This document shows, piece by piece, positions 34,901 to 56,262 of a DNA stretch of 64,000 bases (position 1 is the first letter of the stretch; each line of letters begins with the position of its first letter). Under the pieces are notes generated by a model. The model was not told the DNA's origin, did no database searches, and worked only from the letters and a program-made list of their open reading frames with translations. Origin of the DNA: Miscanthus floridulus (lineage: Eukaryota > Streptophyta > Magnoliopsida > Poales > Poaceae). Where the stretch lies: NCBI RefSeq assembly GCF_019320115.1, contig NC_089593.1, forward strand, positions 18,336,870-18,400,869. The letters run 5' to 3'. Both the position numbers and the translations under genes were made by a program.

Positions 34901-36311
34901 CTTCTACTATGCTTATACTACATTAATGTGTCGTGTTATCTGAACTATGGGGAGTGTGCTGCGTGTGTGACTTGGGTGTGTGGAGGGTGAGGGTTGTGTT
35001 GACCAAGTTAGAGTATACGATGAGCCTGGGGCAAGTCTTGCCATAGGGTGCTACCTGGGCACCCCTGGAATGGATACCTGTGGTGGGTAAACGGCATATG
35101 AGGTGGACCTGGGTGTGAACTTGTGATGGGAGGAGCCCGGGATGGAGGTGCTGTGGTGGCAGGATAAATGGGAACCCTGATGGAGACATTCTGGCTTGGT
35201 CATCCCTAACGACTTACTAGTACTCCGATTCACTGGGAAGCCTTACGTACCACTCGCCCTATATGGTGCGGGACGGCCGGACTACTTGGTAGGATATTGC
35301 CACTACTGCTAGGTTGATAGCGGACAGTGTAAGGAGGTATGGGGCGCGGAGGATTTCCCCCACACCCTTCTGAGACTTCATGGAGAACTTGTGGACCCGG
35401 CTCATGACTCATAGTTTCAGCCACCCCAGACTAGACTTGGGGTGAACCAGGGCTGAATGGTAGAGTGGCATTATCCTAGGCTAGCAAGCGGCCGGAATCA
35501 GCCCAGTTGACGACGGTCAACGAGGAAGGCAGATCTTGTGGTTATGTAAAACTTCTGCAGAGTGTATGGTTGATTGATCGATACATGTGCCGACTTGTCG
35601 GCTATGGACCTTTCCTGGGTTTCGCTTAAACTAGATAGTGAGATGAGTCATTCCTTTCTCCCCCTGTGAGAGAGTGTCGGTCGTAGCTAGGGGCTACGGG
35701 CCTTGAGACAGTGCCGAGAGGGAGTTGGCCTGTCGACTGAGCGATGGTATGGTTATGGTATGGTTATGGTATGATGATGGTGTGGTGATGGAGGTATATC
35801 GATCCTAGGATCGAAACCTGGCTCTGGAATGGAAATGGGGTGGAATGTGTGTGGGAATGGTGTTAAAACTTGACAAACTACTATTATATACTTGATATGC
35901 TAATGCATAGGAAACCCCAGCCTTATAGGTTCCTTTTGACTATATCCAACTTGCATCCAATTTTCACAAAGCAATGCTCATAGGGTTGGGAGTGGCCAGT
36001 ACAAATCGTACTGATAAATTTTGGCACACAGGTTCTGCTGAGGAGTATAGCTCCAAGGAGTTTGACGGTTGAGGGGTTCGTGCCTACGCTCGACTCTGGC
36101 GATCTTATCTTCAAGCTGTTCCGAATGAATGCTACTTTTGATTCCGCCAATACGGCGATGTAATAATTTAAGTACTTCCACACTATTTGTACTATGATAT
36201 TATCATTGTATGGATGTGATATTCGACTGGAATTTGGGTAATATGATCTATAACAGTCTTATTACACTTCGACGTTGTGGATTTCCCTTCGCGGAAATCG
36301 GGGTCGTTTCA
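31998..36311 (+). repeat. Element 2 3' LTR
   Basis: A 4314-bp LTR matching 21271-25635, with scattered substitutions and one loss of about 50 bp in the GC-rich core near 32537. The TATA box (32889-32895) and the TTGAC/TGACGT field (33960-34395) are retained. Its last 1.1 kb occur again at 49408-50505. Confidence 0.95.
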
Positions 36312-37108
36312 ATTACTGAATAAAGTACTTGATAAAAGTAAAGTACTAAATAAAGTAAATGCTAAATAAAAGATTAAAAAGGAGCTATACCAGACTAGAA
36401 GAGTCTTCCAAACTCCGAGGCAAGCTTCGCTCTAACTCTATCACTACAAGCTAGCTACTACTTCTAAAGCTACTACTTGAGAGCTTCTTGGAGAGCTTGG
36501 AATGCTTGAGGGATGATCTTCACCGAGCACCACTGCCCCTTCATAGTGTGTAGAGGGTTGGGGGCTACTTGTAGGTAGCAATGAGGCAGTGGAGAGGCAA
36601 GGGGGCATCGGCCGACCGTCCCCTGCACTGCCTTTGCATCCAATGGCGATGGATGCCCTATAGATGGCGGTTGCATGTAGGTAGGTCAGTTGCTTTGGCA
36701 GGTAAGACGGTTTTTAGGTCAGTTTGGCCCCTCGAGTGTATGATAATGGATCCATGGATCCAAGGGAGCTCAACCTTCACCTTTGGATCACATCGGCATA
36801 GATCAATGTTGGAGAGGACTCCTAGGGGTGCTGCCTTGCAAGTCATGCGAATCAGTGACGTGGCAGGCCAAGTGAGGCGTTGGGCGATGCCATGTGGCGT
36901 CGACCGACCCCACCAAGTGGGCCCATGGCCACTTGCCTCCTATGCACCTTATTTGTCCATTTTTGTGAAAATTCCTGCATAAAAATAAATTTTTCAAGTA
37001 CAAGTGAAACTAGGTGAATTATAAACATGTAATGGCACTGTGATGTTGTTTTACCTTGGTTTTGGGTGGAATGTTGATGGTCAAAATGGGTGTTAGTGAC
37101 CATCAACA

Positions 37109-37346
37109 AGTGTATCTTGTCATTTTAGGGGAGAAGGTTAACTTGTTATTTGGCTCTATTACCATGGATGTTTGTTTGTGTTGTAAAGGTGTGCTTTCTA
37201 GTCACTTTCTTTATCTTTTTAGTCATTTGAGGACAAAAGGTTATCTTGTTATTTGGCTCTATTAATGTGGATGTTTGTTTGTGGTGTAAAGGTGCGCTTT
37301 CTCCTCATTTGCTTTATCTTTTTAGTCATTTGAGGAGAAAAGCTTA
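37109..37346. repeat. Minisatellite segment 2, ending in the target duplication GCTTA
   Basis: About two and a half further units of the same minisatellite (GGTTAACTTGTTATTTGGCT and so on), ending GAGGAGAAAAGCTTA. The last five bases, 37342-37346, are the target site of element 3. Confidence 0.8.
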
Positions 37347-40300
37347 TGTAACAGAACTGACCAAATCATAAGAACGTAAGTACAAAAACAATCACCGAAG
37401 CGATCAAATTCCTGTACTTAAGCTCCCATAATCCCGGTAGTCCGGAAATCATGAAGGATTTCAACCAACTCTTGACATACAAACTAAGACCGTAGTGATT
37501 CAACACAACACATCATTCGTTACACATTTCAAAAGTAGCATTCGGAGTACATCCATCAGAGTTCGAATAAAAATATTACAAACCAAGTTCAAATTTGCGG
37601 AAGCAACATAGTTTAGTACATAACTTCATAGTTTCAAATACATTGCCAGATCTGAGTCATGTCCCACAAAAGCATCTTCAGGTACGAGAACTAGGAGAGA
37701 CCGCGCCCAACGGTCTAGTCTTCATCCCCAGCCGGGAGAAGGCAATACTTGCAGCAACCAAAGTAGAACTGGTCATCTGTAATAGGTGGGACATAAACCC
37801 TGAGTACGAGAAGGTACTCAGCTAGACTTACTCATCAAAACTAGAAATAAAAGACACCAAGGGTCATGCAAGGCTTATGAGGTGGGCTAGCTGGACACAG
37901 TTGCATAAAAGAGCTTATGAATATAGTAAACAATTTAAAACTTCGCATCAAGTTATCATCATTTACCTGTCCACTAGATTTGCACCTGTACTAGAGCACT
38001 CACTTATTAGGAGCAAACAATATTAACCATAGCAGGTATAATAAGGCTGTCATCATCATATCATCATTTCCGAACCATTAGGTTATTTAGTGTATCTACT
38101 TTGGAGATAAGCCCGTCAAGTTCTCACTAACCGGGAGAGACGGTGACTTGAATCGAATTACAACTCAGCTGAGGGGGTATTCCTAACTCTCACCCTAGCA
38201 TACTTTGCAAGGGTAGCCGTTGGTCACCTTTGGGACAACTCAGGAACCAAATTCGCGGGTTTGATCAGCGCCAGCGCTCTCAAGGATTACCCTTCTGCCA
38301 GGACGATCAGGACTTTTAAATCACCTACCCTTGGACTCATGCCTACGGCTCCCTTCCGAGGCGTACTTTATACTTATCGACTCCCGGCCTGAGGTGAACT
38401 ACTCGGCTTCATGGTCGGTCTCCAGACCCGGCCAACTAAGAGAGAGGCATGCGTTCAACATGAATAGGAAAGGCTCCAAGATTCAGTCCTTAAGCGACAC
38501 AGACGGAGTCACTGCAAACCGGCAAGCCTCCGTCCGGTCTTCTTTTCAAATTAAGACTGGTTCTTTTCCACGATAGCAAATATAGCCAACTGTGCCATAT
38601 GTATCTTCCTATATCTTGTAGGTGACAGGAAATCACCTGACTTCTACCGTGTTTAAGCAGGGCTAAGCACTACACGAGCCTAAGCTACATAGGATTCAGG
38701 GTATCAATATCTGGACAAGGATTGGATAACCAATGCAGCAAGTGTTTGCATCCAACACCGAAACTTAATGCAATAATATATATATATATAACAATAATAC
38801 TGTAACTGCATTTCGGAAATTAGGAGGCTTAATATGCTCCGAGGCTTGCCTTTCACAAAGTTGCACGGACGGTGATCTGGGCACTCAACGGCGACCTCGT
38901 CTGGCACTTCTCCTGAAGGTTGCACCTCCTGAATCTCCGATGTTGGCTGCTGCTGCTCGCTCAGTTCCTCGAATTCCAGCAGGGTCACTCCTTCCAGTAC
39001 ACCTATTGCATGCCGATGCACAAGATAAATATCATGGATGCATAAGGAATGACATGATGCTCATGATGAATGAATCACAGTAAGTGTTTAACGCAAACAT
39101 CACTAGACACTCGTTTACCGATTAAGAATAGCTCTATTCAAATCACTTTAAAACGTGTATCTAACTTAACTTGAAGAACGAGATCAACTTACCTAACTTG
39201 CATAACCTAAGATAAAGATGCTCATCTTCAGTTAAAGGCCTAACACCTAGGAACATTACCACAAACTTAGAAATAGTAAAGGCATACTTAAAACAATAGT
39301 TAAAGTTTCATATGCACACGGGTAGTTCCTTAATTCAATCATAACCAGAGTTCTATAAATTCAAATGACTTGCAAGAGGACATTCTGGAAACCTTATGAA
39401 ATTCTCTACAAATTATTTGTAAACATCAAAGCATGATTCTTACGTTAACCAAATCGAATTCTAGTAAACCTAGAATCTGTCCAGAAATGACAGGGTTACT
39501 AAATTAAATATTTAGTGATGATGCGAAAGCAAAATTGGACCAAACCAAGTTTACCAACTTGTTGTGCATACCAGAAGAACATTAGAAAGTATAGTGCCAA
39601 CTTCTAAATAAATTATTTAATATCCTTTTCTAATTTATTTAGTTAATTAGGTGATTAAAGCAATATATAGTAAAACTATTTAGAAAAATCTACAAAAATT
39701 ACAGTAGCTATCTCATGCTTCACATAGACTATCATAAAAATTTCAAAGCCATTGGGCAAGCAGAACTTTCTGTATCCAAAATAACAGGTGGCATGTCTAT
39801 TTTTAGCATAATTAGGAAACCCTATTGAAAAGTGTCAAGCAACAGATTTCTCATTTTTCCTAGCATCATTCTAGCATAAGAACAGCACTCACCAAATTTT
39901 ACCCTTACTGGATCTATAGAAAAATTATGAAAATTCACACAAGATCCATCCATGCAAACAAGAGAATTTTATAACTCCTACATACAGTGTCCAAAATGTA
40001 TGAAAATTTGTCTACAAGCTATACATGATATGAGCAGTACACCATAAAAATTTCATGCCATTTGAAGCTACATAGAAAAAGATATAATTATCCCTATTTC
40101 CTTCATGATTAAAAGAGATATTTAGCAACTCCATTTTTCATAACAGAACATGGTATAATTTATATTTTTAATATAAACTAGACATTATCATGAACTCAAC
40201 AAAATTGGAACCACATCATTTGAATCTACCAACTAGGAGATACATATTTTTGAATATAAAGAATAAAACAAAAACGAATTTGAAACCCTACTTTACTGCT

Positions 40301-41997
40301 GGGCCAGCCCGATCAGACTCGGCGGCCCACAGTGCATGCGCAAGCGTAGCCTAGCCACGACGCGGCCCAGGCTGGCTCCCGCCTGAGAACGACGGCTGAC
40401 GCGCGGGTCCCACGCGACAGAGAGACAGACAGGGGAAGGGAGAACGGACGGCGGCGCAACTCGTCGCCGGTGGCCTCTCCGGCGAGTCCAGCAGTGCTAC
40501 GGTGTTCACCTCACCCATGCGCATCTAGTGGTGCCCTCAATTGAAGCTATTGCTGTGGCTAAAGGCAATGGCGACGACCATGGCAGCGCACGGCCACGGC
40601 ATGGCCGGCTCCGGTGAGGCTACGGCGTCTCGGCCCTAATGGCCCACTCTACGAGCTTCAGCGTCACACACAGCAGCAAGCGCAAGGGAGAGAAAGGATG
40701 GAAAGGCCGCGGTGGCAGTTGGCCACGTGGAGCGCCAACTCTGGCGAGGTCCCGCCATGGCGGCGGTGGAAGAACTGGCGATTACGCCCTTACCCAGCCT
40801 CAATCGCCCCGGCTGAAAGGTGGAGGTGGTAGAGGAGATCACGGCGAGGCTAGGAACAAGATGGCTGGCGCGTTTTTGTAGTGGCGAGCGCGCAAGGCAA
40901 CGGCGACGCTCGGTCAGAACTAGAGGAGCTACGGCGGCTCGGCGCTGCGCGCGGTGGAGGCGAAAGGGTGCAAATGGAGCAGGCGAGTGCATCGGGCAGG
41001 CGCTGGCCTTCATCTGGAGCTCGGATGCACGACGTGGAGACATTGGTAGAGCATGCGCGCCACACGGCGAGCAGCTCCTGCGCCGGTCGGCCACGGCGAA
41101 CTCTGACCGTTTTCTGAAAATTGCGATTTAGTGTTCAATGACGACGCCTGACAGCGCGACTTCAACGATCCGTAACTCCCAAACGGTGGCGATCTGGTTC
41201 ATGGTATAGTTAACAAAATTGAAGACCTAAGTGAGTACTACAACTTCTTCAATTGGAGCTCGAGTTGGTTCGGCCTGGTTAGGGAGATACAAGTCTCCAA
41301 ACATTGGTACACGAAACTATAACTCAACTTAAGGACTTAGAAAAATTCTAAGTATGAAATCAGCAGGGAAATTTGACTTGTGGGCCTTGTTTGACCATGT
41401 TCCACACATTTTCATGAGTGGGTCATAAAACAACTTTTGTTCCTTGGTAAATTGGCTACAACTTTGGTAAAGAGTGCACAGCCATGCAAAGTCTCTAAGT
41501 TGGTCTTTTGAATCAGTCAAACAGTGGCACTCTAAGGGTCAATTCAAGTCAAACCTCTCCTAAAGGGCAATTTGGTCATTTTGGTCCACATGAACAATGT
41601 CCAAACAATTACCCTAAGTGTAGTTAAGGTGTATTAGACCATAATCAACCACTTTACACAAGTGCTATACCAATTTCTAATGATCACATGTGATGAAGCA
41701 ACAAAACAAGCAATTCACTCAAATGTTGCAATTCCATGTTTCACATGTTTCATGACTTTGTTGTTATTTTGTACTTGTCATATTACTACCATGTTGCCAT
41801 GTTTCAAGGTATGAGAAACTCATGTTGCATTCACATGTTGCACTACTACCATTCATAAGCAATCAAGTATGAAACAAACAGAATTTGCGAATGTTGCAAG
41901 TGTATGTTTCAGTGACAATGGCATGATGACATAGATGATGCATATGTTTATGAAATGAAATGCACTTTTGTGGAAGCCAAACACCTAGGGTGTTACA
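37347..41997 (-). repeat. Element 3 3' LTR
   Basis: A 4651-bp LTR, starting TGTAACAGAACTGACC and ending GGGTGTTACA on the plus strand. It contains a GC-rich core (about 40300-41170) and a short (AT)n run near 38774. Small apparent ORFs in the core are not supported. It matches 51515-56181 over its whole length and 48133-49407 over its left 1.27 kb. Confidence 0.93.
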
Positions 41998-42010
41998 GCC
42001 CTCCCCCTTA
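41998..42010 (-). other. Element 3 polypurine tract
   Basis: The minus strand reads TAAGGGGGAGGGC next to the 3' LTR start TGTAACACC. Confidence 0.8.
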
Positions 42011-42039: not shown

Positions 42040-43935
42040 GTACCATTTAGTATAGAAAGTTGGATTATTTTCCTTTAAATAATCTTACCGCTCCCATGTT
42101 GCATCCCGATCACTATGATTACTCCAAACTACCTTGTACAACTTAACTACTCACCTACAAGTCACTCTTTCTTGAGTATCCAGAACTTGCACGGGCTTCT
42201 CCTCATAAGAAAGATCAGATTTCAAGTTGACTTTCCTTGTTGCTATTCTTTCCTCGGGAATACGAAGACACTTCTTCAGCTGGGACACATGGAATACCGG
42301 GAATATAGCTCCCATCTCATGTGGTAGATCGAGTTTATAGGCTACTCTTCCACTTTTTTCGATAATGCGGTAAGGTCCAACATATCGAGGCTCAAGCTTC
42401 CTTTTAATTCCAAAACGTTTTACTCCTTTCATAGGGGATACCTTCAGATAAACATGGTCACCTACTTCAAACTCAATAGGTTTTCTTCTCTTATCAGCAT
42501 AGCTCTTTTGTCTAGCCTGAGTGGCAGTCATATTCTTCTGTATAGTTCGGACTTGCTCTTTGGCTTCTTTTACAAAATCAATACCATAGAATCTTCTTTC
42601 TCCGGGTTCCACCCATTTCAAAGGAGTTCTACACTTGCGGCCATAAAGAGCTTCAAAAGGAGCCATTTTGATACTCTCTTGATAACTGTTGTTATAAGAG
42701 AATTCAGCGAGAGGCAACCAGTCCTCCCAAGAGCCTTTGCAAGAGATAAGACAAGCTCTAAGCATGTCTTCAAGAATTTGATTAACACGCTCAGTATGTC
42801 CTGATGTTTGCGGATGATAGGTAGAACTGCGGATTAGATGAGTGCCAAGGTTCTGATGTAAGCACTCCCAAAAGCGAGCCGTGAATTGCAGTCCTCTATC
42901 AGAAACAATGGATTTGGGTACACCATGGAGACGTACCACTTGTTGAAAGTAAATCTCAGCATAATTGTGAGGGTGATAGGTAGACTTGACCGGAATAAAG
43001 TGAGCGGATTTAGTTAGACAATCTATGATAACCCAGATGGAATCACAACCCTTTTTGGTAGTGGGTAATCCAACAATGAAATCCATAACAATTTCTTCCC
43101 ACTTCCAGCCAGGAATAGAGAGTGGCTGCAATAATCCGAGCCTCATGTGAATAGCCTTGACTCTACAACAGTTATCACACCTTGCCACGTAGGCTGTGAT
43201 TTCTTTTTTCATCTTGGTCCACCAATAATACAGCCTGAGATCTTGATACATTTTACTGCTACCAGGATGGATGGACAATCTAGAAGAATGGGCTTCAGCC
43301 ATAATTTGATTTCTAAGTTCTTTGTCTTTGGGTACTACAAGCCTATCATTAAACCAGAGAATTCCTTTGTCATCGACCTTAAAGTGCTTGGTCTCCTGAT
43401 CTTTCATCTTCCGCTTGATATGAAACACACCCACATCAGTCTTTTGGAGTTCGATAATCCAACTTCTAAGAGAGCAATCCACAGTGATATTGTGGAGTAC
43501 TGCAGGATGAAGGAGGTGTGCCAGATGAAAGTCTTCACTAACTAAGGAATTGCAATGGGCCTTTCTGCTTAAGGCATCAGCAACCACATTTGCCTTACTA
43601 GGATGGTAGTGCACTTGAAGGTTGTAGTCTTTGATTAATTCTAACTATTGTCGTTGACGCATGTTCAACTCGGGTTGAGTAAAGATGTACTTGAGACTTT
43701 TATGGTCCGTATAGATGTTGCACACATTACCCAGCAAGTAATGTCTCCAAATCTTCAGGGCATGAACAACCATGGCTAGCTCTAAGTCATGGGTAGGATA
43801 ATTGACTTCATGTTTTCGAAGCTGGCATGAAGCATAAGCAATGACTCGGCCCTCCTGCATAAGAACACACCCCAAATCGGTGCCACATGCATCACAGTAG
43901 ACATCAAAAGGCTTCTCGATGTCAGGTTGTGCCAA
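42040..43935 (-). pseudogene. Element 3 RNase H, integrase and chromodomain
   Basis: RNase H runs from 43935 ([26 protein letters not shown]). After a stop near 43647 a 487-codon open stretch (43614-42151) continues with VVADALSRK. The HHCC finger (HPGSSKMYQD, CDNCCRVK) and the integrase core (DCLTKSAHF, SDRGLQF, HPQTSGHTE, carrying the D, D and E residues) follow. The integrase C-terminus contains VYLKVSPMKG. A TAG at about 42148 is followed in frame by chromodomain residues VVKLYKVVWSNHS, with another stop near 42090. The frame differs from that of the upstream RT because of a small deletion near 43940. Integrase inserts the cDNA; the chromodomain is expected to guide it to marked chromatin. 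Confidence 0.88.
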
Positions 43936-46379
43936 TATAAGGTCTGCAAAGTGTGGAAAGCCTCTTCACACTTTGGAGTCCACACAAACTTCTCATCCTT
44001 TTGAAGTAGTCGAGTCATGGGCTTGGTGATTTTTGAGAAATCTGAGATAAAGCGACGATAGTAGCTAGCCAAACCTAGGAAACTTCAGACTTCTATGACC
44101 GTAGTAGGTGCCTTCCACTCCAGGACTTCTTGCACCTTAGTAGGGTCAACCGAAATTCCATCTCCACATAACACATGACCTAGAAAAGGTATCTTGTTCA
44201 ACCAGAATTCGCACTTGCTGAACTTAGCATAAAGCTGGTTGTCACGTAACCGAGTTAAAACAATTCTCAGATGTTCAGCATGCTCTTCTTCATTCTAAGA
44301 ATATACAAGGATATCATCAATGAACCCGACGACGAATTTGTCCAGTTCCGGCATGAATACTGAATTCATCAGGTACATAAAGTGTGTCGGAGCATTTGTC
44401 AACCCAAAGGACATGACAAGGTATTCGAACAAGCCATAACGAGTAGAGAAAGTTGTCTTAGGTATATCTTCAGGACGAATTTTGATCTGATGGTAGCCAG
44501 ACCTCAAATCGATCTTGGAGAATACCTTAGCTTTGGAGAGCTGATCAAACAGAATATCGATGCGAGGAAGAGTGTATTTGTTCTTGATAGTAACAGCATT
44601 GAGGGGGCGATAATCTATGCACATGCATAGAGACTCGTCCTTCTTCTTCACAAATATAGCCGGACAACCCCAAGGAGAAGAACTAGGCCGAATCAAACCT
44701 TTCTTTAATAGCTCATTTAACTGACTCTTCAGCTCAGCCAACTCATTGGGCGGCATTCTATAGGGCCTTCGAGAAATAGGAGTCGTACCCAGAATGAGTT
44801 CTATCTTGAATTCTACTTCTCGGTCTGGAGGTAATCCATGCAAGTCATCAGGGAAGACATCTGGAAACTCACAGACAACCGGTATATCTTCAATGGCTTT
44901 GGCTAGGGTAGCATTGGCTGTATTGTGGATAGCGATATCATGAGGTAACTGCACTAGAAAACCCTTCTTATCCATAGGATCTCGCAACATTACCACACGG
45001 GTTGATGTATCGATCAACACTCCATTCCCGCTCATCCACTTCATCCCTAGGATTACATCGATTCCTACCCCTGGTAGAACTACAAGATCCGTAAGGAACT
45101 CTTGATCCCCAATCTCAATCTTTACATCTTTAACTACTTGGTTAGTCATGATATTATTTCTAGCAGCACTAATACAATAACCACCCTTGACAATTATAAT
45201 CACATTCATCTTATGCTTAGATGCAAAAGTAGAACTCACAAAGGAATGCAAAGCACCCGAATCAAAGAGCACAACTGTAGGGTGATCATTAACAAGGAAC
45301 TTACCAGCGGTGACAACTTCACCAGCAGGAATTTCCTCCACAGTAGTGTAGTGAACACGCCCCTGACGGACGTTTCCTTGAGCATTCTGCTTGGAAGGAT
45401 AGGGACACTTATTAGCCCAGTGACCAGGCTGGTTATAGTTCCAGCATGACCTGTTTGCTGGTGGAATATTGGAGCTGCCCTGCCTAGAGGTATTCTTTGG
45501 CAAGGAAATTGTGTACCCCTTGTGGAAACCAGTTTTAGCTTGATTCTTCTTCTGAGGTGGGCAGTACCGGACATTAGCATTGGGTGGACGATACTGGGTC
45601 TTGGATACCACTGGTGCCTTAGAATGAGAAGCACCTGCCTCAAAGTTTCTTTTATGGGTCTTGGAAGCAGCATATATCTTATCATTATTCTCCTGAGTCA
45701 GGGTGTCACTGATAAACTCATTGAAGGTGACACACTTACAGTTGCCCATAGACTTCATCAGTTTAGGGGAAAGTCTTCTCTTGAAACTAGCTATTCTTTT
45801 GGCGTTAGTATCGACGAACTCAGGAGCATACCTTGCCAGGTTGTTGAATGCCTGGAGGTATTCATTAAGACTCTTGTTGCCTTGGGTTAGCTTCATAAAC
45901 TCGGTATGCTTAATGGCCATGAGACCAGGAGGGATAAAATGTTCTCGGAAAGCTATCTGGAACTGGTCCCAAACTATCTCGACATTTGCAGGGAAGGTGG
46001 TCCTATGATGGGTCCACCAGATGCCTGCAGGGCCTTGGAGCTGGTGTCCTGCATACGAAGCCTTCATACCTTCTATCAAATGGAGCAATCCAAACCTTTG
46101 CTCTATCGTACTCAACCATTCATCAGCTTGTAATGGTTCTTCTGCCTCTCTAAAGATAGGAGGCTTTGTGTCCATGAAGTCCTTAAAGCTACTGTACTAG
46201 TTCGGCTCGGGTCCCTGGCGGACATGTCGATCATCGCGGTTAGCCATATGGCGCATAGCCTTAGCTAGCATGCGCTGACTTTCAATGACTGTCTGCATTA
46301 GCTCAGCTGGTGTGGGCGGTGGAGGAGGTGGTTGTTCCTCATCTCCCATGCTATGACCGCAATAAAGGTTATAAGCCAT
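43936..46379 (-). pseudogene. Element 3 gag, protease and RT (626 codons open)
   Basis: The frame starts at 46379 (MAYNLYCGHS) or at the internal MGDEEQPPPPP. It has a TAG at 46197-46199, then is open from 46175 to 44295. Gag has the capsid core ([11 protein letters not shown] to [18 protein letters not shown]) and a zinc knuckle near 45450, [14 protein letters not shown], with Tyr in place of the second Cys. Protease has [12 protein letters not shown] and [11 protein letters not shown] has [25 protein letters not shown] and FIDDILVYS. After a TAG at 44295 the frame continues through the RT thumb to about 43940, where a small deletion shifts it. Only two stops and one frameshift separate this from an open gag-pol. 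Before the ATG at 46379 stands TTGCAA, where elements 2 and 3 otherwise have CAG. Confidence 0.9.
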
Positions 46380-46794: not shown

Positions 46795-47378
46795 CTACGC
46801 ATCGTCCTCGGAGTCAGTGTCGAAGATCTCTCCTCCATCTTCATCACTAGCAGGTTCTAACTCCTCATCTTCCTCCTCTTCAGGTGGACGTCCTCAGGTC
46901 CATTGACCTCAATGCCATCATCACCTTCAGCCATGATGACACCAGAGCCCATCTCATCCTCATCATCAGGGGGCAGGAGAGGGTGAAGTTGATTATGTAA
47001 CAGGTGAACCTCCTCATGGAGATGGTCATTGTACTCTTCGGCAACTGCCAACTGATGCTCTAGCTCCACCTGTCGCGCTCTCAACACATTCTTCTCATGC
47101 TAGGCTTCATTCCGTTGGTTCAGCACATGAATCAACATACATTCACAGTTGCGGTGAGCAACTATCAACCTCTGAACCTCCAGGGACTCTTGGTCCTGTT
47201 CCTGTGTTACTTGCTCCAAACGGTGCTGAGCCGCATTCCTCTCAGCATTCACCTGGGCCAGCTCTGCCCTCAGCCTTTCCGCCTCAGTAGGCTCCGGACG
47301 GGGCTCACGAGGAGCTAACCGGTGACGAGGCGCCCTGCCTCCAGTGGAATTGCGAGCAGTGAGTTTTGTGTGCGCCAT
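46795..47378 (-). pseudogene. Element 3 extra ORF: histone H3-tail-like start, coiled coil, acidic end
   Basis: The ATG at 47378 follows GCTACAG. Residues 1-22 match the histone H3 N-terminus at 16 positions, with the pattern AxTKxTARxSTGGxAPR then LA two residues on. H3 Lys4, Arg8, Ser10 and Thr11 are kept; Lys9 is Asn, Lys14 is Arg and Lys18 is His. No H3 histone fold follows. Instead there is a Pro/Arg-rich linker, then from about residue 35 a Glu/Gln/Leu-rich segment (RLRAELAQVNAERNAAQHRL) typical of a coiled coil. A TAG at 47100-47102 interrupts it, then the same frame continues with another coiled-coil stretch and an acidic region to a stop at 46857-46859. In another frame a Glu/Asp-rich tail continues to a stop at 46795-46797, so a small frameshift near 46890 is likely. 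I know of no named family; a chromatin-mimic role is inference. Confidence 0.7.
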
Positions 47379-48117
47379 CTGTAGCAAAAAGTTGCAACGT
47401 AAGGGGAGAATCATTTAAGGGATACGAAATTTAATTAGTCGAGACCATCAATTTTAAAGGAGGCAGTAATGCAACAATGCTATGTGTGCTTGAAAATGAT
47501 GCATGCACGATCCGTACGTCCTCACAAACCTAGAAAAATTTAAAGGCTAGCGAATACATGGTGGCATACATACATTCTCTCGTATACGGTATCTAGTCGA
47601 TCTACAACGATATGTTGTTAGTGTACCTGCAGAAAATTTCATTTTAGCCCAATAGTTTCCTAAAAAGGCATATAAAGTAAGCAGTAAACTAAATACTTTC
47701 ATACATACATCCCCCGATGTATATATTCTAGTATCACGGCTACCCGACAGAGATACCCACATTTAAGTACTCTCATAGATACATGGTCAAACATGTAAGT
47801 ATGCGAGCAACCACAACTACTCTCCCCTAGACCGACGGTTGGACGGTCATGCTCTCACAACTCCCACTTACCAGAGCGTAGAGGTATTTTGATCCATATA
47901 TTACCACCCAAGCAGATGGCATCCATACAATAGCACGCCGTATGGACAACGAAACATAAACAAGCAGGAACCCCCAAGTTAGTACTTTAACAAGCCACCT
48001 AAGAGTCCTTATTTGGGCATAAGGGATATGACCACTAGCAATACTTAGTATTTAATTTAGGATTTTCACAAATACTTTTGTTTTAAATACACAAATGACA
48101 TGTTTAGTGTCGAATCT
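47379..48117 (-). other. Element 3 untranslated leader
   Basis: About 740 bp between the primer-binding site and the extra ORF. I see no coding potential. It ends (minus strand) with AACTTTTTGCTACAG before the ATG, resembling a 3' splice site. Confidence 0.5.
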
Positions 48118-48130
48118 TGCTCTGATGCCA
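48118..48130 (-). other. Element 3 primer-binding site
   Basis: The minus strand reads TGGCATCAGAGCA, two bases inside the LTR end. It matches the initiator-Met site except for one internal base and the last position. Confidence 0.8.
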
Positions 48131-48132
48131 GC

Positions 48133-49407
48133 TGTAATAGAACCGACCAAATCATAAGAACGTAAGTACAAAAACAATCATCGAAGCGATCAAATTCCTG
48201 TACTTAAGCTCCCATAATCCCGGTAGTCCAAAAATCACGAAGGATTTCAACCAACTCTCGACATACAAACCAAGACCGTAGTGATTCAACACAACACATC
48301 ATTCGTTACACATTTCACAAGTAGCATTCGGAGTACATCCATCAGAGTTCGAATAAAAATATTACAAACCAAGTTCAAATTTGTGGAAGCAACATAGTTT
48401 AGTACATAACTTCATAGTTTCAAATACATTGCCAGATCTGAGTCATGTCCCACAAAAGCATCTTCAGGTACGAGAACTAGGAGAGACCGTGCCCAACGGT
48501 CTAGTCTTCATCCCTAGCTAGGAGAAGGCAATACTTGCAGCAACCAAAGTAGAACTGGTCCTCTGCAATAGGTGCGAGATAAACCCTGAGTACGAGAAGG
48601 TACTCAGCTAGACTTACCCGTCAAAACCAGAAATAAAAGACACCAAGGGTCATGCAAGGCTTATGAGGTGGGCTAGCAGGACACAGTTGCATAAAAGAGC
48701 TTATGAATATAGTAACCAATTTAAAACTTCGCATCAAGTTATCATCATTTACCTGTCCACTAGATTTGCACCTGTACTAGAGCACTCACTTATTAGGAGC
48801 AAACAATATTAACCATAGCAGGTATAATAAGGCTATCATCATCATATCATAATTTCCAAACCATTAGGTTATTTAGTGTATCTACTTTGGAGATAAGCCC
48901 GTCAAGTTCTCACTAACCAGGAGAGACGGCGACTTGAATTGAATTACAACTCAGCTGAGGGGGTATTCCTAACTCTCACCCTGTCATACTTTGCAAGGGT
49001 AGCCGTGGGTCACCTTTGGGACAACTCAGGAACCAAATTCGCGGGTTCGATCAGCGCCAGCGCTCTCAAGGATTACCCTTCTGCCAGGACGATCAGGACT
49101 TTTAAATCACCTACCCTTGGACTCATGCCTACGGCTCCCTTCGGAGGCGTACTTTATACTTATCGACTCCCGGCCTGAGGTGAACTACTCGGCTTCGTGG
49201 TCGGTCTCCAGACCCGGCCAACTAAGAGAGAGGCATGCATTCAACATAAATAGGAAAGGCTCCAAGATTCAGTCCTTAAGCGACACAAACGGAGTCACTA
49301 CAAACCGGAAGCCTCCGTCCGGTCTTCATTTTAAATTAAGACTGGTTCTTTTCCACGATAGCAAATATAGCCAACCGTGCCATATGTATCTTCCTATATC
49401 TCGTAGG
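48133..49407 (-). repeat. Element 3 5' LTR, truncated
   Basis: The 1275 bp nearest the internal region match 37347-38622 and 51515-52789. At 49407 (TCTCGTAGG) the match stops and sequence equivalent to 35213 of the element 2 3' LTR begins. This is a rearrangement junction, not an LTR end. Confidence 0.92.
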
Positions 49408-51514
49408 ACTTACTAGTACTCCGATTCACCGGGAAGCCTTACGTACCACTCGCCCTATATGGTGCGGGACGGCCGGACTACTTGGTAGGATATTGCCACT
49501 ACTGCTAGGTTGATAGCGGACAGTGTAAGGAGGTACGGGGCGCGGAGGATTTCCCCCACACCCTTCTGAGACTTCATGGAGACCTTATGGACCCAGCTCA
49601 TGACTCATAGTTTCAGTCACCCCAGACTAGACTTGGGGTGAACCAGGGCTGAATGGTAGAGTGGCATTATCCTAGGCTAGCAAGCGGCCGGAATCAGCCC
49701 AGTTGACGATGGTCAGCGAGGAAGGCGAATCTTGTGGTTATGTAAAACCTTTGCAGAGTGTATGGTTGATTGATCGATACATGTGCCAACTTGTCGGCTA
49801 TGGACCTTTCCTGGGTTTCGCTTAAACTAGATAGTGAGATGAGTCATTCCTTTCTCCCCCTATGAGAGTGTCGGTCGTAGCCAAGGGCTACGGGCCTTGA
49901 GACAGTGCCGAGAGGGAGTTGGCCTGTCGACTGAGCGATGGTATGGTTATGGTATGGTTATGGTATGATGATGGTGTGGTGATGGAGGTATATCGATCCT
50001 AGGATCGAAACCTAGCTCTAGAATGGAAATGGGGTGGAATGTGTGTGGGAATGGTGTTAAAACTTGATAAACTACTATTATATACTTGATATGCTAATGC
50101 ATAGGAAACCCCAGCCTTATAGGTTCCTTTTGACTATATCCAACTTGCATCCAATTTTCACAAAGCAATGCTCATAGGGTTGGGAGTGGCCAGTACAAAT
50201 CGTACTGATAAATTTTGGCACACAGGTTCTGCTGAGGAGTATAGCTCCAAGGAGTTTGACGGTTGAGGGGTTCGTGCCTACGCTCGAGTTTGGCGATCTT
50301 ATCTTCAAGCTGTTCCGAATGAATGCTACTTTTGATTCCGCCAATACGGCGATGTAATAATTTAAGTACCTCCGCACTATTTGTACTATGATATTATCAT
50401 TGTATGGATGTGATATTCGACTAGAATTTGGGTAATATGATCTATAACGGTCTTATTACACTTCGATGTTGTGGATTTCCCTTCGCGGAAATCGGGGTCG
50501 TTTCAATTACTGAATAAAGTACTTGATAAAAGTAAAGTACTAAATAAAGTAAATGCTAAATAAAAGATTAAAAAGGAGCTATACCAGACTAGAAGACTCT
50601 TCCAAACTCCGAGGCAAGCTTCGCTCTAACTCTATCACTACAAGCTAGCTACTACTTCTAAAGCTACTACTTGAGAGCTTCTTGGAGAGCTTGGAATGCT
50701 TGAGGGATGATCTTCACCGAGCACCACTGCCCCTTTATAGTGTGTAGAGGGTTGGGGGCTACTTGTAGGTAGCAATGAGGCAGTGGAGAGGCAAGGGGGC
50801 ATCGGCCGACCGTCCCCTGCACTGCCTTTGCATCCAATGGCGATGGATGCCCTATAGATGGCGGTTGCATGTAGGTAGGTCAGTTGCTTTGATAGGTAAG
50901 ACGGTTTTTAGGTCAGTTTGGCCCCTCAAGTGTATGATAATGGATCCATGGATCCAAGGGAGCTCAACCTTCACCTTTGGATCAAATCGGCATAGATCAA
51001 TGTTGGAGAGGACTCCTAATCAGTGATGTGGCAGGCCAGGTGAGGCGTTGGGCGATGCCATGTGGCGTCGACCGACCCCACCAAGTGGGCCCACGGCCAC
51101 TTGCCTCCTATGCACCTTATTTGTCCATTTTTGTGAAAATTCCTGCATAAAAATAATTTTTTCAAGTACAAGTGAAACTAGGTGAATTATAAACATGTAA
51201 TGGCACTGTGATGTTGTTTTACCTTGGTTTTGGGTGGAATGTTGATGGTCAAAATGGGTGTTAGTGACCATCAACAAGTGTATCTTGTCATTTTAGGGGA
51301 GAAGGTTAACTTGTTATTTGGCTCTATTACCATGGATGTTTGTTTGTGTTGTAAAGGTGTGCTTTCTAGTCACTTTCTTTATCTTTTTAGTCATTTGAGG
51401 ACAAAAGGTTATCTTGTTATTTGGCTCTATTAATGTGGATGTTTGTTTGTGGTGTAAAGGTGCGCTTTCTCCTCATTTGCTTTATCTTTTTAGTCATTTG
51501 AGGAGAAAAGCTTA
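49408..51514. repeat. Duplicated block: element 2 LTR end, solo LTR right part and minisatellite
   Basis: Matches 35213-37346 nearly throughout. It comprises the last 1.1 kb of the element 2 3' LTR (49408-50505), the target copy ATTAC (50506-50510), the right part of the solo LTR (50511-51276), and the minisatellite up to GCTTA (51510-51514). It differs by scattered substitutions and lacks about 26 bp near 51018 that the other copy has at about 36823-36848. Confidence 0.93.
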
Positions 51515-54500
51515 CGTAACAGAACCGACCAAATCATAAGAATGTAAGTACAAAAACAATCACCGAAGCGATCAAATTCCTGTACTTAAGCTCCCATAAT
51601 CCCGGTAGTCCGGAAATCATGAAGGATTTCAACCAACTCTCGATATACAAACCAAGACCGTAGTGATTCAACACAACACATCATTTGTTACACATTTCAA
51701 AAGTAGCATTCGGAGTACATCCATCAGAGTTCGAATAAAAATATTACAAACCAAGTTCAAATTTGCGGAAGCAACATAGTTTAGTACATAACTTCATAGT
51801 TTCAAATACATTGCCAGATCTGAGTCATGTCCCACAAAAGCATCTTTAGGTACGAGAACTAGGAGAGACCACGCCCAACGGTCTAGTCTTCATCCCCAGT
51901 CCGGAGAAGGCAATACTTGCAGCAACCAAAGTAGAACTGGTCATCTGTAACAGGTGGGAGATAAACCCTGAGTACGAGAAGGTACTCAGCTAGACTTACC
52001 CGTCAAAACCAGAAATAAAAGACACCAAGGGTCATGCAAGGCTTATGAGGTGGGCTAGCTGGACACAGTTGCATAAAAGAGCTTATGAATATAGTAAACA
52101 ATTTAAAACTTCTCATCAAGTTATCATCATTTACCTGTCCACTAGATTTGCACCTGTACTAGAGCACTCACTTATTAGGAGCAAACAATATTAACCATAG
52201 CAGGTATAATAAGGTTGTCATCATCATATCATCATTTCCGAACCATTAGGTTATTTAGTGTATCTACTTTAGAGATAAGCCCGTCAAGTTCTCACTAACC
52301 AGGAGAGACGACGACTCGAATTGAATTACAACTCAGCTGAGGGGGTATTCCTAACTCTCACCCTAGCATACTTTGCAAGGGTAGCCGTGGGTCACCTTTG
52401 GGACAACTCAGGAACCAAATTCGTGGGTTCGATCAGCGCCAGCGCTCTCAAGGATTACCCTTCTGCCAGGACGATCAGGACTTTTAAATCACCTACCCTT
52501 GGACTCATGCCTATGGCTCCCTTCCGAGGCGTACTTTATACTTATCGACTCCCAGCCTGAGGTGAACTACTCGGCTTCGTGGTCGGTCTCCAGACCCGGC
52601 CAACTAAGAGAGAGGCATGCGTTCAACATGAACAGGAAAGGCTCCAAGATTCAGTCCTTAAGCGACACAGACGGAGTCACTGCAAACCGGCAAGCCTCCG
52701 TCCAGTCTTTATTTCAAATTAAGACTAGTTCTTTTCCACGATAGCAAATATAGCCAACCGTGCCATATGTATCTTCCTATATCTCGTAGGTGACAGGAAA
52801 TCACCTGACTTCTACCATGTTTAAGCAGGGCTAAGCACTACACGAGCCTGAGCTACATAGGATTCAGGGTATCAATATCTAGACAAGGATTGGATAACCA
52901 ATGCAGCAAGTGTTTGCATCCAACACCTAAACTTAATGCAATAATATATATATATATATAACAATAATACTGTAACTGCATTTTGGAAATTAGGAGGCTT
53001 AATATGCTCCGGGGCTTGCCTTTCACAAAGTTGCACGGACGGTGATCCGGGCACTCAACGGCGACCTCATCTGGCACTTCTCCTGAAGGTTGCACCTCCT
53101 GAATCTCCGGTGTTGGCTGCTGCTGCTCGCTCAGTTCCTCGAATTCCAGCAGGGTCACTCCTTCCGGTACACCTATTGCATGCCGATGCACAAGATAAAT
53201 ATCATGGATGCATAAGGAATGACATGATGCTCATGATGAATGAATCACAGTAAGTGTTTAACGCAAACATCACTGGACACTCGTTTACCGATTAAGAATA
53301 GCTCTATTCAAATCACTTTAAAACGTGTATCTAACTTAACTTGAAGAACGAGATCAACTTACCTAACTTGCATAACCTAAGATAAAGATGCTCATCTTCA
53401 GTTAAAGGCCTAACACCTAGGAACATTACCACAAACTTAGAAATAGTAAAGGCATACTTAAAACAATAGTTAAAGTTTCATATGCACACGGGTAGTTCCT
53501 TAATTCAATCATAACTAGAGTTCTATAAATTAAATGACTTGCAAGAGGACATTCTGGAAAGCTTATGAAATTATCTACAAATCATTTGTAAACATCAAAG
53601 CATGATTCTTACGTTAACCAAATCGAATTCTAGTAACCCTAGAATCTGTCCAGAAATGACAGGGTTACTAAATTAAATATTTAGTGATGATGCAAAAGCA
53701 TAATTGGACCAAACCAAGTTTACCAACTTGTTGTGCATACCAGAGGAACATTAGAAAGTATAGTGCCAACTTCTAAATAAATTATTTAATATCCTTTTCT
53801 AATTTATTTAGTTAATTAGGTGATTAAAGCAATATATAGTACAACTATTCAGAAAAATCTACAAAAATTACAGTAGCTATCTCATGCTTCACATAGACTA
53901 CCATAAAAATTTCAAAGCTATTGGGTAAGCAGAACTTGCTGTATCCAAAATAATAGGCGGCATGTCTATTTTTAGCATAATTAGGAAACCCTATTGAAAA
54001 GTGTCGAGCAATAGATTTCTCATTTTTCCTAGCATCATTCTAGCATAAGAACAGCACTCACCAAATTTTACCCTTACTGGATCTATAGAAAAATTATGAA
54101 AATTCACACAAGATCCATCCATGCAAACAAGAGAATTTTATAACTCCTACATACAGTGTCCAAAATGTATGAAAATTTAACTACAAGCTATTCATGATAT
54201 GAGCAGTACACCATAAAAATTTCATGTCATTTGGAGCTACATAGAAAAGATATAATTATCCCTATTTCCTTCATGATTAAAAGAGATATTTAGCAACTCC
54301 ATTTTTCATAACAAAACATGGCATAATTTATATTTTTAATATAAACTAGACATTATCATGAACTCAACAAAATTGGAACCACATCATTTGAATCTACCAA
54401 CTAGGAGATACATATTTTTGAATATATACACAAATCTGTGAAAAGAATAAAACAAAAACGAATTTGAAACCCTACTCTACTGCTGGGCCGGCCCGGTCAG

Positions 54501-56181
54501 ACTCGGCGGCCCATAGTGCATGCGCAAGCGCAACCCAGCCACGACGCGGCCCAGGCTGGCTCCCGCCTGAGAACGACGGCTGACGCGCGGGTCCCACGCG
54601 ACAGAGAGACAAACAAGGGAAGGGAGAACGGACGGCGGCGCAACTCGTCGCCGGTGGCCTCTCCGGTGAGTCCAGCGGTGCTACGGCGTTCACCTCACCC
54701 GTGCGCATCTAGTGGTGCCCTCAATTGAAGCTATTGCTGCGGCTAAAGGCAATGGCGACGACCATGGCGGCGCACGGCCACGGCATGGCCGGCTCCGGCG
54801 AGGCTACGGCGTCTCGGCCCTAATGGCCCACTCTACGAGCTTTAGCGTCACACACAGCAGCAAGCGCAAGGGAGAGAAAGGATGGAAAGGCCGCGGTGGC
54901 AGTTGGCCGCGTGGAGCGCCAACTCTGGCGAGGTCCCGCCATGGCGGCGGTGGAAGAACTAGCGATTACGCCCTTACCCAGCCTCAATCGCCCCGGCTAA
55001 AAGGTAGAGGTGGTAGAGGAGATCACGGCGAGGCTAGGAACAAGATGGCCAGCGCGTTTTTGTAGTGGCGAGTGCGCAAGGCAACGGCGATGCTCGGTCG
55101 GAACTGGAGGAGCTGCGGTGGCTCGGCGTTGTGCGCGGTGGAGGCAAAAGAGTGCAAATGGAGCAGGCGAGTGCGTCGGGCAGGCGCTGGCCTTCATCTG
55201 GAGCTCGGACGCACGATGTGGAGACGTCGGCAGAGCATGCATGCCACGCGGCGAGCATCTCCTGCGCCGGTCGGCCACGGCGAACTCTGACCATTTTCTG
55301 AAAATTGCGATTCAGTGTTCAATGACAACGCCTGACAGCGTGACTTCAACGATCCGTAACTCCCAAACGGTGGCGATCTGGTTCATGGTATAGTTAACAA
55401 AATTGAAGACCTAAGTGAGTACTACAACTTCTTCAATTGGAGCTCGAGCTGGTTCGGCCTGGTTAGGGAGATACAAGTCTCCAAACATTGGTACACGAAA
55501 CTGTAACTCAACTTAAGGACTTAGAAAAATTCTAAGTATGAAATCAGCAGGGAAATTTGACTTGTGGGCCTTGTTTGACCATGTTCCACACATTTTCATG
55601 AGTGGGTCATAAAACAACTTTTGTTCCTTGGTAAATTGGCTACAACTTTGGTAAAGAGTGCACAGCCATGCAAAGTCTCTAAGTTGGTCTTTTGAATCAG
55701 TCAAACAGTGGCACTCTAAGGGTCAATTCAAGTCAAACCTCTCCTAAAGGGCAATTTGGTCATTTTGGTCCACATGAACAATGTCCAAACAATTACCCTA
55801 AGTGTAGTTAAGGTGTATTAGACCATAATCAACCACTTTACACAAGTGCTATACCAATTTCTAATGATCACATGTGATGAAGCAACAAAACAAGCAATTC
55901 ACTCAAATGTTGCAATTCCATGTTTCACATGTTTCATGACTTTGTTGTTATTTTGTACTTGTCATATTACTACCATGTTGCCATGTTTCAAGGTATGAGA
56001 AACTCATGTTGCATTCACATGTTGCACTACTACCATTTATAAGCAATCAAGTATGAAACAAACAGAATTTGCGAATGTTGCAAGTGTATGTTTCAGTGAC
56101 AATGGCATGATGACATAGATGATGCATATGTTTATGAAATGAAATGCACTTTTGTGGAAGCCAAACACCTAGTGTGTTACA
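51515..56181 (-). mobile_element. Solo LTR of the element 3 family
   Basis: A 4667-bp full-length LTR flanked by GCTTA at 51510-51514 and 56182-56186, with no internal region. Its left terminal base is C instead of T (CGTAACAG). The flanking duplication is the same as that left of element 3, so this is a second version of the same insertion, reduced to a solo LTR. Confidence 0.9.
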
Positions 56182-56262
56182 GCTTACATTGTTATTTGGC
56201 TTTATTACTATGGATGTGTGTTTGTGGTGTAAACATGTGCTTTCTTGTCATTTCCTTTATCT
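56182..56262. repeat. Minisatellite segment 3, right of the LTR cluster
   Basis: Starts with the target copy GCTTA and continues CATTGTTATTTGGCTTTATT, the same unit as at 37109-37346. Joined in thought with 20450-20549 and 37109-37346 it gives roughly 410 bp, close to the length of the array upstream of copy 1. Confidence 0.75.

What the first reader, a model, noticed from the sequence alone, without database searches (positions are those of the whole stretch)
47310..47378. Histone H3 tail mimic at the start of an extra retrotransposon ORF
The first 22 residues of the minus-strand ORF at 47378 agree with the histone H3 N-terminus at 16 positions (pattern AxTKxTARxSTGGxAPR, then LA). The match stops exactly where the H3 tail gives way to the histone fold. 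This is too long and too ordered to be chance. H3 Lys4, Arg8, Ser10 and Thr11 are kept, while Lys9 is Asn in this copy. The element also encodes a chromodomain, a module known to read methylated H3 tails. One idea is that the mimic binds the element's own chromodomain or a host reader, writer or eraser of H3 tail marks (for example to blunt silencing or steer integration). I am not aware of a description of this.
Basis: partly seen in the sequence, partly recalled or inferred. Interest (0 to 1): 0.88.

Follow-up and report, generated by a model that had tools for sequence, protein, structure and literature searches.

The report
Jumping gene carrying a histone tail
A family of grass retrotransposons makes an extra protein that begins with a near-copy of the histone H3 tail, apparently taken from a host histone gene and preserved by selection, possibly as a decoy for the machinery that silences it.

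Summary
The minus-strand ORF at 47378 starts with 15 of 21 residues identical to H3 A1-A21, in register with its start codon. The window copy is a decayed member: K9N is its own, stop at codon 93. Among 57 copies of its family in the same genome, K4 is kept in 57 and K9 in 56. In a second, longer ORF0 family K9 is kept in 40 of 40, and three copies read ARTKQTARKSTGGRAPRHQLA, differing from H3 only at K14R and K18H. Between the families the tail has dN 0.16, dS 1.65: purifying selection. In six of six H3.3 genes read here the first coding exon appears to end after K23; ORF0 has conserved splice-like signals. Capture of an H3.3 first coding exon fits best. Proposed function, inferred: an oligomeric H3-tail decoy. 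It keeps K9 but lacks K18 and T22, which CMT3/ZMET2 use for activation (PMC9256654), so it could bind without activating. The element's own chromodomain is an unlikely partner. The extra ORF was known; no description of its H3 tail was found.

The parts
47313..47378 (-). H3-like tail of ORF0 (Met + residues 1-21: AHTKLTARNSTGGRAPRHRLA)
46795..47378 (-). ORF0 (5' extra ORF): H3 tail, Pro-rich linker, long helix (coiled coil), acidic C-terminus; broken here by a stop at codon 93 and a later frame change
   Evidence: helix and acidic end seen in relatives
47379..47388 (-). TTTGCTACAG, putative 3' splice site directly before the ATG; AG at this place in 56 of 57 short-family copies and 35 of 40 long-family copies
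47866..47871 (-). GTAAGT, putative 5' splice site of a leader intron of about 493 nt; GGTAAGT near this place in 55 of 57 short-family copies, GTAAGT at -529 to -535 in 3 of 3 long-family loci
48113..48130 (-). primer binding site-like TGGCATCAGAGCAAGATT (initiator-Met type, by recall)
48133..49407 (-). remaining 3' part of the 5' LTR
44295..46175 (-). gag (Retrotrans_gag), protease, start of reverse transcriptase
42151..43614 (-). integrase part of pol (H2C2, SH3_Tf2-1; rve below its cut-off)
42043..42222 (-). group II-like chromodomain remnant with two stops
37347..41997 (-). 3' LTR (TGTAACACCC...TTACA), preceded by a polypurine tract AAGGGGGAGGG and followed by TAAGC

Best explanation
What it is (well supported): the 5' extra ORF (ORF0) of a Tekay/Del-type chromovirus LTR retrotransposon begins with a tail derived from histone H3, most simply the first coding exon of a host H3.3-type gene captured with the splice acceptor before its ATG. 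In its least changed copies it differs from H3 A1-A21 only by K14R and K18H, and it has been kept by purifying selection since two ORF0 families split. It sits on a long helix with an acidic C-terminus. How it works (inferred): ORF0 is made from a spliced leader. The initiator Met before Ala is removed as in H3, which exposes A-R-T-K4. The protein enters the nucleus as a coiled-coil oligomer that displays several H3-like tails. Host SUVH enzymes methylate its K9. The tails then occupy H3K9me2 readers, above all the BAH and chromodomains of CMT3/ZMET2 (contacts with H3 1-10). They lack K18 and T22, so they cannot give the allosteric activation that true H3 gives. The result would be a competitive, non-activating decoy that weakens the CHG-methylation/H3K9me2 loop on the element. 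Shown here: homology, register, constraint between families, exon-like boundary, conserved splice-like signals, near-fixation of R14 and H18, decay at CHG sites. Not shown: expression, splicing, oligomerisation, methylation, binding, effect on silencing. My confidence is about 0.9 that this is a conserved, H3-derived tail and about 0.35-0.4 in the CMT3 decoy mechanism.
For: Homology: the PDB rows shown are all H3 or H3-type. Short family, 57 genome copies: A1, K4, G13, R14, H18, L20, A21 and P22 57/57 each, K9 56/57 (60 loci, 3 dropped). Long family: 40 of 43 stretches hold the tail; K9 40/40, K4 39/40, S10 39/40, R14 37/40 (3 K), H18 39/40 (1 stop), P22 38/40. These copies were picked by a match outside the tail, so tail similarity did not choose them. 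Selection: short against long family dN 0.157, dS 1.648, ratio 0.10, against 0.45 within each family. Origin: in 6 of 6 H3.3 genes read, H3 coding stops after K23 at AAG|GT; TGCAG stands directly before the ATG in 2 of 6, CTAG in 2, neither in 2; 6 H3.1 genes run on without a break. That plant H3.3 genes contain introns and H3.1 genes do not is reported in PMC4357034 (passages). ORF0 has TTTGCTACAG|ATG in both families and GTAAGT about 495 or 530 nt upstream. Structure: one helix at residues 44-146 of P0127, mostly pLDDT above 90, with low-confidence ends; 26-29 Asp/Glu in 60-61 C-terminal residues in the 3 records counted. Mechanism: ZMET2 BAH contacts H3 1-10; residues 14-23 run along the MTase groove with K18, R17, L20 and T22 contacts; H3(1-17)K9me2 does not stimulate (PMC9256654; section 10 and passages read). 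ADCP1 contacts R2, K4 and K9me2 (PMC6318295, passages). C/T differences between copies: CG 0.200, CHG 0.133, CHH 0.055 per C site per pair, as expected if CHG methylation acts on these elements.
Against: No expression, splicing, peptide or binding data. Shared against rare variants in the tail alone do not reach significance (8/8 against 14/4, Fisher 0.15). Among four protein subfamilies the tail is not significantly less variable than the coil (4 of 21 against 16 of 57 sites, P 0.56). Within the short family pN/pS is higher in the tail (0.40-0.48) than in the coil (0.21-0.25) (with a faulty grouping but covering all pairs). Against the long family the tail's pN (0.133) equals that of the best-kept coil core (0.127) while the core's pS is higher (0.80 against 0.61), so the tail is not more constrained than that core. 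Short-family copies came from the best-scoring 40 of 1134 and 150 of 9006 candidates, so copies that lost the tail are under-represented. R14 and H18 may have arisen for other reasons. The window copy lacks K9. At synonymous sites the link to H3.3 rather than H3.1 is only suggestive: for the two best of ten H3 genes 8.8 identical codons of 15.6 against 4.6 expected, median P 0.016-0.017, not corrected. Upstream sequence shows no similarity to that of 4 H3.3 genes. Q5 has become R or L, and T11 mostly A, in the short family.
Confidence: 0.45

Rival explanations
1. Targeting tether: the K9-methylated tail is bound by host heterochromatin readers and carries the integration complex or ORF0-bound element products to heterochromatin, doing what the cage-less group II chromodomain cannot.
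For: Same conserved residues; the chromodomain looks cage-less, and group II and CR domains are reported to target heterochromatin by an unknown mechanism (PMC12786077, passages).
Against: Does not explain the near-fixed loss of K18 and K14; nothing seen joins ORF0 to integrase.
Confidence: 0.2
2. Nuclear import or basic peptide: the H3 tail is kept because it is a ready-made importin signal or nucleic-acid-binding peptide, not as an epigenetic mimic.
For: H3 tails are import signals (recall); 9 Lys/Arg in the first 29 residues of a composed subfamily-B-type sequence; 5' extra ORF proteins of Poaceae Tekay elements are predicted nuclear (PMC11728184, passages).
Against: A basic signal would not need uncharged positions such as T6, A7, S10, G13, P16, L20 and A21, nor the register from the start codon, which nearly all copies keep (each position 56-57 of 57 and 38-40 of 40).
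Confidence: 0.18
3. Substrate competitor of H3K4/K9 writers or erasers (SUVH, JMJ, LSD1-like) or of N-terminus-reading PHD fingers, rather than of CMT3.
For: A1-R2-T3-K4 and T6-A7-R8-K9-S10, the usual epitopes (recall), are kept in most copies.
Against: K4 is R in 7 of 127 protein records; no enzyme could be tested.
Confidence: 0.15
4. Neutral relic of a captured H3 exon.
For: Shared against rare variants of the tail alone are not significant.
Against: dN/dS 0.10 between families at near-saturated synonymous sites; 16 of 16 full-length protein records keep K4 and K9.
Confidence: 0.03
5. Convergent mimicry without capture: the ORF0 start evolved toward the H3 tail.
For: Synonymous sites are near saturation, so DNA homology cannot be shown directly.
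Against: Up to 19 of 21 residues in register, and boundaries close to those of the H3.3 exon.
Confidence: 0.08

Closest known systems
ORF0 / 5' additional ORF of Tekay/Del chromoviruses (Retrosat2, RIRE3, RIRE8, FRetro3, Poaceae and sunflower Tekay)
   Same: Position between 5' LTR and gag, Ty3/gypsy gag-pol with chromodomain, long LTRs (Retrosat2 and RIRE8 begin TGTCACACCC, this one TGTAACACCC), helical and disordered protein, grass hosts among others (PMC3485330, PMC11728184, PMC6317226; passages read; own sequence).
   Different: No H3-like tail is mentioned there as far as word counts show ('histone' occurs 0 times in PMC3485330 and PMC11728184, once in PMC6317226, about chromodomains). 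The ORF0 sequences of the named elements were not available here, so whether they carry the tail was not tested.
Histone mimics of viruses and cells (influenza NS1 tail, G9a, EZHIP; recall)
   Same: A short histone-tail look-alike on an unrelated protein.
   Different: Those are short or internal motifs (recall); here 21 residues from the start codon, apparently a captured exon, in a transposable element.
Retrotransposons carrying epigenetic genes (DNMT-bearing elements, PMC5890265; orchid AlkB element, described in PMC12786077)
   Same: A retroelement that took up host genes of gene-silencing or RNA-modification pathways (PMC5890265: title and start of abstract in the listing; PMC12786077: passage).
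   Different: Those took enzyme domains; here only the substrate/ligand tail of H3.
Geminivirus TrAP, a viral inhibitor of SUVH4/KYP (PMC4606454, start of abstract in the listing)
   Same: A parasite protein aimed at the same plant silencing pathway (for ORF0 proposed only).
   Different: TrAP binds the catalytic domain; the part of the abstract seen does not call it an H3 mimic.

Membership tests
Tekay/Del chromovirus LTR retrotransposon | Ty3/gypsy order gag-protease-RT-...-integrase | tested here: met
Tekay/Del chromovirus LTR retrotransposon | chromodomain at the integrase C-terminus, group II (first and third cage aromatics missing) | tested here: met
   (third by the alignment, first by eye); definition from PMC3605345. 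Group II is shared with Reina and Galadriel.
Tekay/Del chromovirus LTR retrotransposon | reverse-transcriptase phylogeny | not tested
   no reference set used
ORF0 of the Retrosat2/RIRE3/RIRE8 group | ORF between 5' LTR and gag, in sense orientation | tested here: met
ORF0 of the Retrosat2/RIRE3/RIRE8 group | protein sequence similarity to the published ORF0s | not tested
   those sequences were not found in the collections used
histone H3 | histone fold after the tail | tested here: not met
   no Pfam histone match; a helix of about 100 residues follows in the model of a relative
histone (H3 tail) mimic | tail similarity beyond chance | tested here: met
histone (H3 tail) mimic | tail kept by selection | tested here: met
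   the weaker within-family tests are not significant
histone (H3 tail) mimic | recognised or modified by H3 readers or writers | not testable with these tools
   needs peptide assays
H3.3 exon capture | boundaries equal to the H3.3 first coding exon | tested here: inconclusive
   Close fit: 6 of 6 H3.3 genes stop after K23, ORF0 identity stops at 21; 2 of 6 have TGCAG and 2 CTAG directly before the ATG, ORF0 has CTACAG. Exon ends were read from the DNA, not from transcripts.
H3.3 exon capture | DNA closer to H3.3 than to H3.1 or chance | tested here: inconclusive

The most novel reading that the evidence does not exclude
Grass Tekay retrotransposons carry a transposon-encoded H3 tail, taken from an H3.3 gene as an exon and edited at exactly the residues (K18, T22, also K14) that would turn it from an activator of chromomethylase into a methyl-K9-dependent, oligomeric antagonist. 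It would be a selfish-element inhibitor of the H3K9me2/CHG-methylation loop.
Probability: 0.35. Interest if true: 0.95.

Novelty: new variant of a known kind. Interest (0 to 1): 0.88.

Why it matters
ORF0 of these grass retrotransposons has had no known function. If it is an H3 decoy, it gives that ORF a function, shows histone mimicry by a transposable element, and offers a natural ligand that separates binding from activation of plant chromomethylases. The ORF is present in many copies: the 150 best matches scored in one genome (of 9006 first-look candidates) all begin at residue 1 of the tail, and by my count of the table 120 of 150 have no stop inside the match. So the effect could be large.

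Tried and rejected
Chance resemblance: rejected. A one-off in this copy: rejected.

A tail-less sister family: I first read protein records P0188 and P0189 as ORF0 relatives without the tail. Genome copies of that family (loci L075-L077, then 40 more stretches) have the tail about 114 codons upstream of where the match to P0188 begins, with a middle region in between. P0188 looks like a short gene call (its own upstream DNA was not seen), and that reading was dropped. The middle region has no convincing Pfam or PDB match. PMC11728184 likens such proteins to DRBM proteins (abstract); not confirmed here.

Self-binding to the element's chromodomain: disfavoured. Fold search of the ORF0 model in the PDB: no match. 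Viral contigs gave two weak loci (L001: query residues 17-61, 45%; L002: 43-83, 46%), not followed; genome contigs gave none. Counting K9 across the whole genome by a pattern did not complete. DNA similarity of the ORF0 leader to H3.3 upstream sequence: not above shuffles. A first grouping of copies into lineages was faulty ('4 young, 53 old') and was redone; a subfamily script failed on a wrong index and was redone. One search read many loci in the wrong orientation and was replaced.

Literature: ten searches. Those aimed at histone mimicry in transposable elements were 6, 13, 14 and 48. None of the listings seen shows an H3-tail mimic in a retrotransposon ORF; but one search was swamped (10,449 papers, the mimic terms at 0 in all 30 rows listed), one search listed 25 of 128 and one search listed 20 of 26. 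Only CC-licensed PMC papers are covered.

Full report
Observation. On the minus strand an ORF opens at 47378 with MAHTKLTARNSTGGRAPRHRLAPREPRPEP. Fifteen of the 21 residues after Met equal H3 A1-A21; 200,000 shuffles of the same letters reach 10 at most. phmmer against PDB sequences gives only H3 and H3-type chains in the 60 rows shown of 131 (best E 6.6e-4 for this copy; 5.4e-6 for a composed homolog-like sequence). A six-frame scan of the whole window has no second candidate. This copy is damaged: stop at codon 93 and a later frame change.

The element. The ORF lies between a primer-binding-site-like sequence (48130-48113), directly after the remaining 1275 bp of a 5' LTR (48133-49407), and gag-pol (46175 downward) with gag, protease, RT and integrase domains. 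A chromodomain remnant with two stops lies at about 42222-42043. It matches Clr4's chromodomain (E 3.9e-4) and keeps the middle Trp; it has His where Clr4 has the third aromatic, and by eye the first is missing (sequence). This is the group II type of Tekay, Reina and Galadriel elements (PMC3605345, PMC6317226; passages). The 3' LTR runs from 41997 to 37347. The two copies of the LTR's 3' part (48133-49407 and 37347-38622) are 96.6% identical, about 1.3 million years at a rate of 1.3e-8 (rate recalled). Such 5' extra ORFs, called ORF0 or 5' aORF, are known in Retrosat2, RIRE3, RIRE8 and other Tekay elements, with no established function (PMC3485330, PMC11728184; passages).

The family in protein databases. 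Two searches gave 186 and 237 relatives at E up to 0.001, of which the best 120 each were listed, from ENA and JGI contigs; the host plants are not named there. Of 189 records in hand, 127 have complete residues 1-24 and 62 were set aside: K9 in 125, K4 in 120 (7 Arg), R14 in 119, H18 in 123, P22 in 124. Sixteen records run from tail to acidic C-terminus; all 16 have K4, K9 and R14, 15 have H18 (1 Arg), 15 have P22 (1 Ser). AlphaFold2 on P0127 with a 29-row alignment gives one long helix at 44-146, mostly with pLDDT above 90, and low-confidence ends.

The family in the window's own genome (2.68 Gb in 2420 contigs; of contigs C1-C19 the lengths shown, for all but C13, are 85 Mb or more; by recall the number suggests Miscanthus, not tested). 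The ORF0 DNA query had 1134 first-look candidates, 40 scored; a protein query had 9006 candidates, 150 scored, all 150 matching from residue 1. These are the best-scoring copies, so copies without the tail are under-represented. Of 60 loci fetched, 57 were used (L016 no start found by the script, L031 frame change, L058 same copy as L023): K4 57/57, K9 56/57 (the window copy is the one N), R14, H18, L20, A21 and P22 57/57 each. In the more uniform lineage (27 copies) R2, K4, K9, S10, R14, R17, H18, L20 and P22 are 27/27 and R8 26/27.

A second family. A query with the distant relative P0188 (233 aa) found 12001 candidates, 150 scored, at 49-60% identity. The match does not include the tail. 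Three loci were read. Upstream of the matched part L076 reads MARTKQTAQKSTGGRAPRHQLA (18 of 21), L077 ARTKLTAHKSTGGRAPCHQLA (16 of 21, start codon lost), and L075 a frame-damaged version; all three have gag downstream, 46-59% identical to the window's. In 40 further stretches taken at the expected place, 37 hold the tail (L085, L095 and L103 do not). For the 40 of 43 in all: K9 40, K4 39, Q5 35, R14 37 (K 3), H18 39 (1 stop), P22 38; 16 copies match H3 at 18 of 21 and five at 19. Three copies (L094, L096, L112) read ARTKQTARKSTGGRAPRHQLA and thus differ from H3 only at 14 and 18.

Selection. Nei-Gojobori counts on tail codons 1-21: within each family the ratio is 0.45; between the families (57 x 37 copies; L075, L077 and L089 left out) dN is 0.157 and dS 1.648, ratio 0.10. 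Results that do not help: the tail's between-family pN with L076 and L077 (0.133) equals that of the best-kept 52-codon coil core (0.127), whose pS is higher (0.80 against 0.61), so the tail is not more constrained than that core; within the short family pN/pS is higher in the tail (0.40-0.48) than in the coil (0.21-0.25); shared against rare variants in the tail are 8/8 against 14/4 (P 0.15) while the coil is 27/39 against 119/28 (P 2e-8); among four protein subfamilies 4 of 21 tail sites against 16 of 57 coil sites differ (P 0.56). So the tail is under long-term purifying selection, of the same order as on the rest of ORF0 and not stronger.

Origin. An H3 query in the same genome gave 97 matches among 150 scored of 3869 candidates, among them separate pieces for about residues 1-25. 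Six H3.3 genes were read at their start: in all six H3 coding stops after K23 at AAG|GT. Directly before the ATG two have TGCAG, two CTAG and two neither. Six H3.1 genes read straight on through codon 23. Plant H3.3 genes are reported to contain introns and H3.1 genes not (PMC4357034, passages). ORF0 has TTTGCTACAG directly before its ATG in 49 of 57 short-family copies (AG in 56) and TTTGCTACAG or TTTGCTATAG in 29 of 40 long-family copies (AG in 35). A GGTAAGT lies about 495 nt upstream in 55 of 57 short-family copies, though 14% of leader 7-mers are kept as well or better; GTAAGT lies at -529, -532 and -535 in the 3 long-family loci. The leader has 23 upstream ATGs, so a spliced leader would help, but six lie before the putative donor. 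Synonymous sites cannot prove the source, and the leader is not similar to H3.3 upstream DNA. Capture of an H3.3 first coding exon with its splice acceptor is the simplest reading; convergence is not excluded.

Mechanism. In ZMET2, BAH binds H3 residues 1-10 with K9me2, and residues 14-23 lie along the methyltransferase, with K18 in an acidic pocket and R17, L20 and T22 touching the allosteric loop. H3(1-17)K9me2 does not stimulate appreciably, H3(1-32)K9me2 does, and K18ac cuts the stimulation (PMC9256654; section 10 and passages). ORF0 keeps residues 1-10 (except Q5 in the short family), R17 in most copies (48 of 57, 23 of 40) and L20, and has lost K18 in all 97 copies counted and T22 in all 57 and at least 38 of 40. 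ADCP1 contacts R2, K4 and K9me2 (PMC6318295), mostly kept. A K9-methylated ORF0 tail is therefore predicted to bind these readers but not to activate CMT3, and a coiled coil would make it multivalent. The copies' own decay shows raised C/T change at CHG (0.133) over CHH (0.055), and stops in the short family are mostly TAG (30 of 38), consistent with CHG methylation acting on this family. All steps from expression onward are inference. Rivals: tether to heterochromatin, import signal, competitor of other H3 enzymes.

Novelty. The ORF is known; the H3 tail was not found in the papers searched (word counts inside PMC3485330, PMC7264820, PMC6317226, PMC11728184 and PMC11963269). Subscription papers, preprints and supplements were not covered.

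Noticed in passing
35211-41999 and 49407-56183: A 6.8-kb direct repeat (96.9%) places a solo-LTR-like copy (about 56181-51516, TAAGC on both sides) and 2.1 kb of flank against the truncated 5' LTR of the element: a local duplication or unequal exchange after insertion.
   Followed up: partly
L075-L077 (second ORF0 family): Longer ORF0s have a middle region of about 100 residues between H3 tail and coil (FLGEFGMPTLLWRVL...GRTPEEAASRAAFAILRDIMDRF in L077) with no convincing Pfam or PDB match; it may be the DRBM-like part reported for Tekay extra ORFs.
   Followed up: partly
57 short-family copies, codons 1-129: Decay is strongest at CG and CHG (C/T 0.200 and 0.133 against 0.055 at CHH), and 30 of 38 internal stops are TAG: an imprint like that of CHG methylation.
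   Followed up: yes
L081, L082, L097: Three long-family copies have Lys at position 14 (codon AAA) where most have Arg (AGA): back mutation or an older state.
   Followed up: no
window 4967-6226: About 71% similar to 43629-44873, the reverse-transcriptase region: a second, more distant gypsy-type remnant in the window.
   Followed up: no
47414: An in-frame upstream ATG 12 codons before the tail; many protein records of the short family start there (MILPLRCNFLLQ). If it were the true start, the tail would be internal; the stretch differs between subfamilies and is not seen in the long family.
   Followed up: partly
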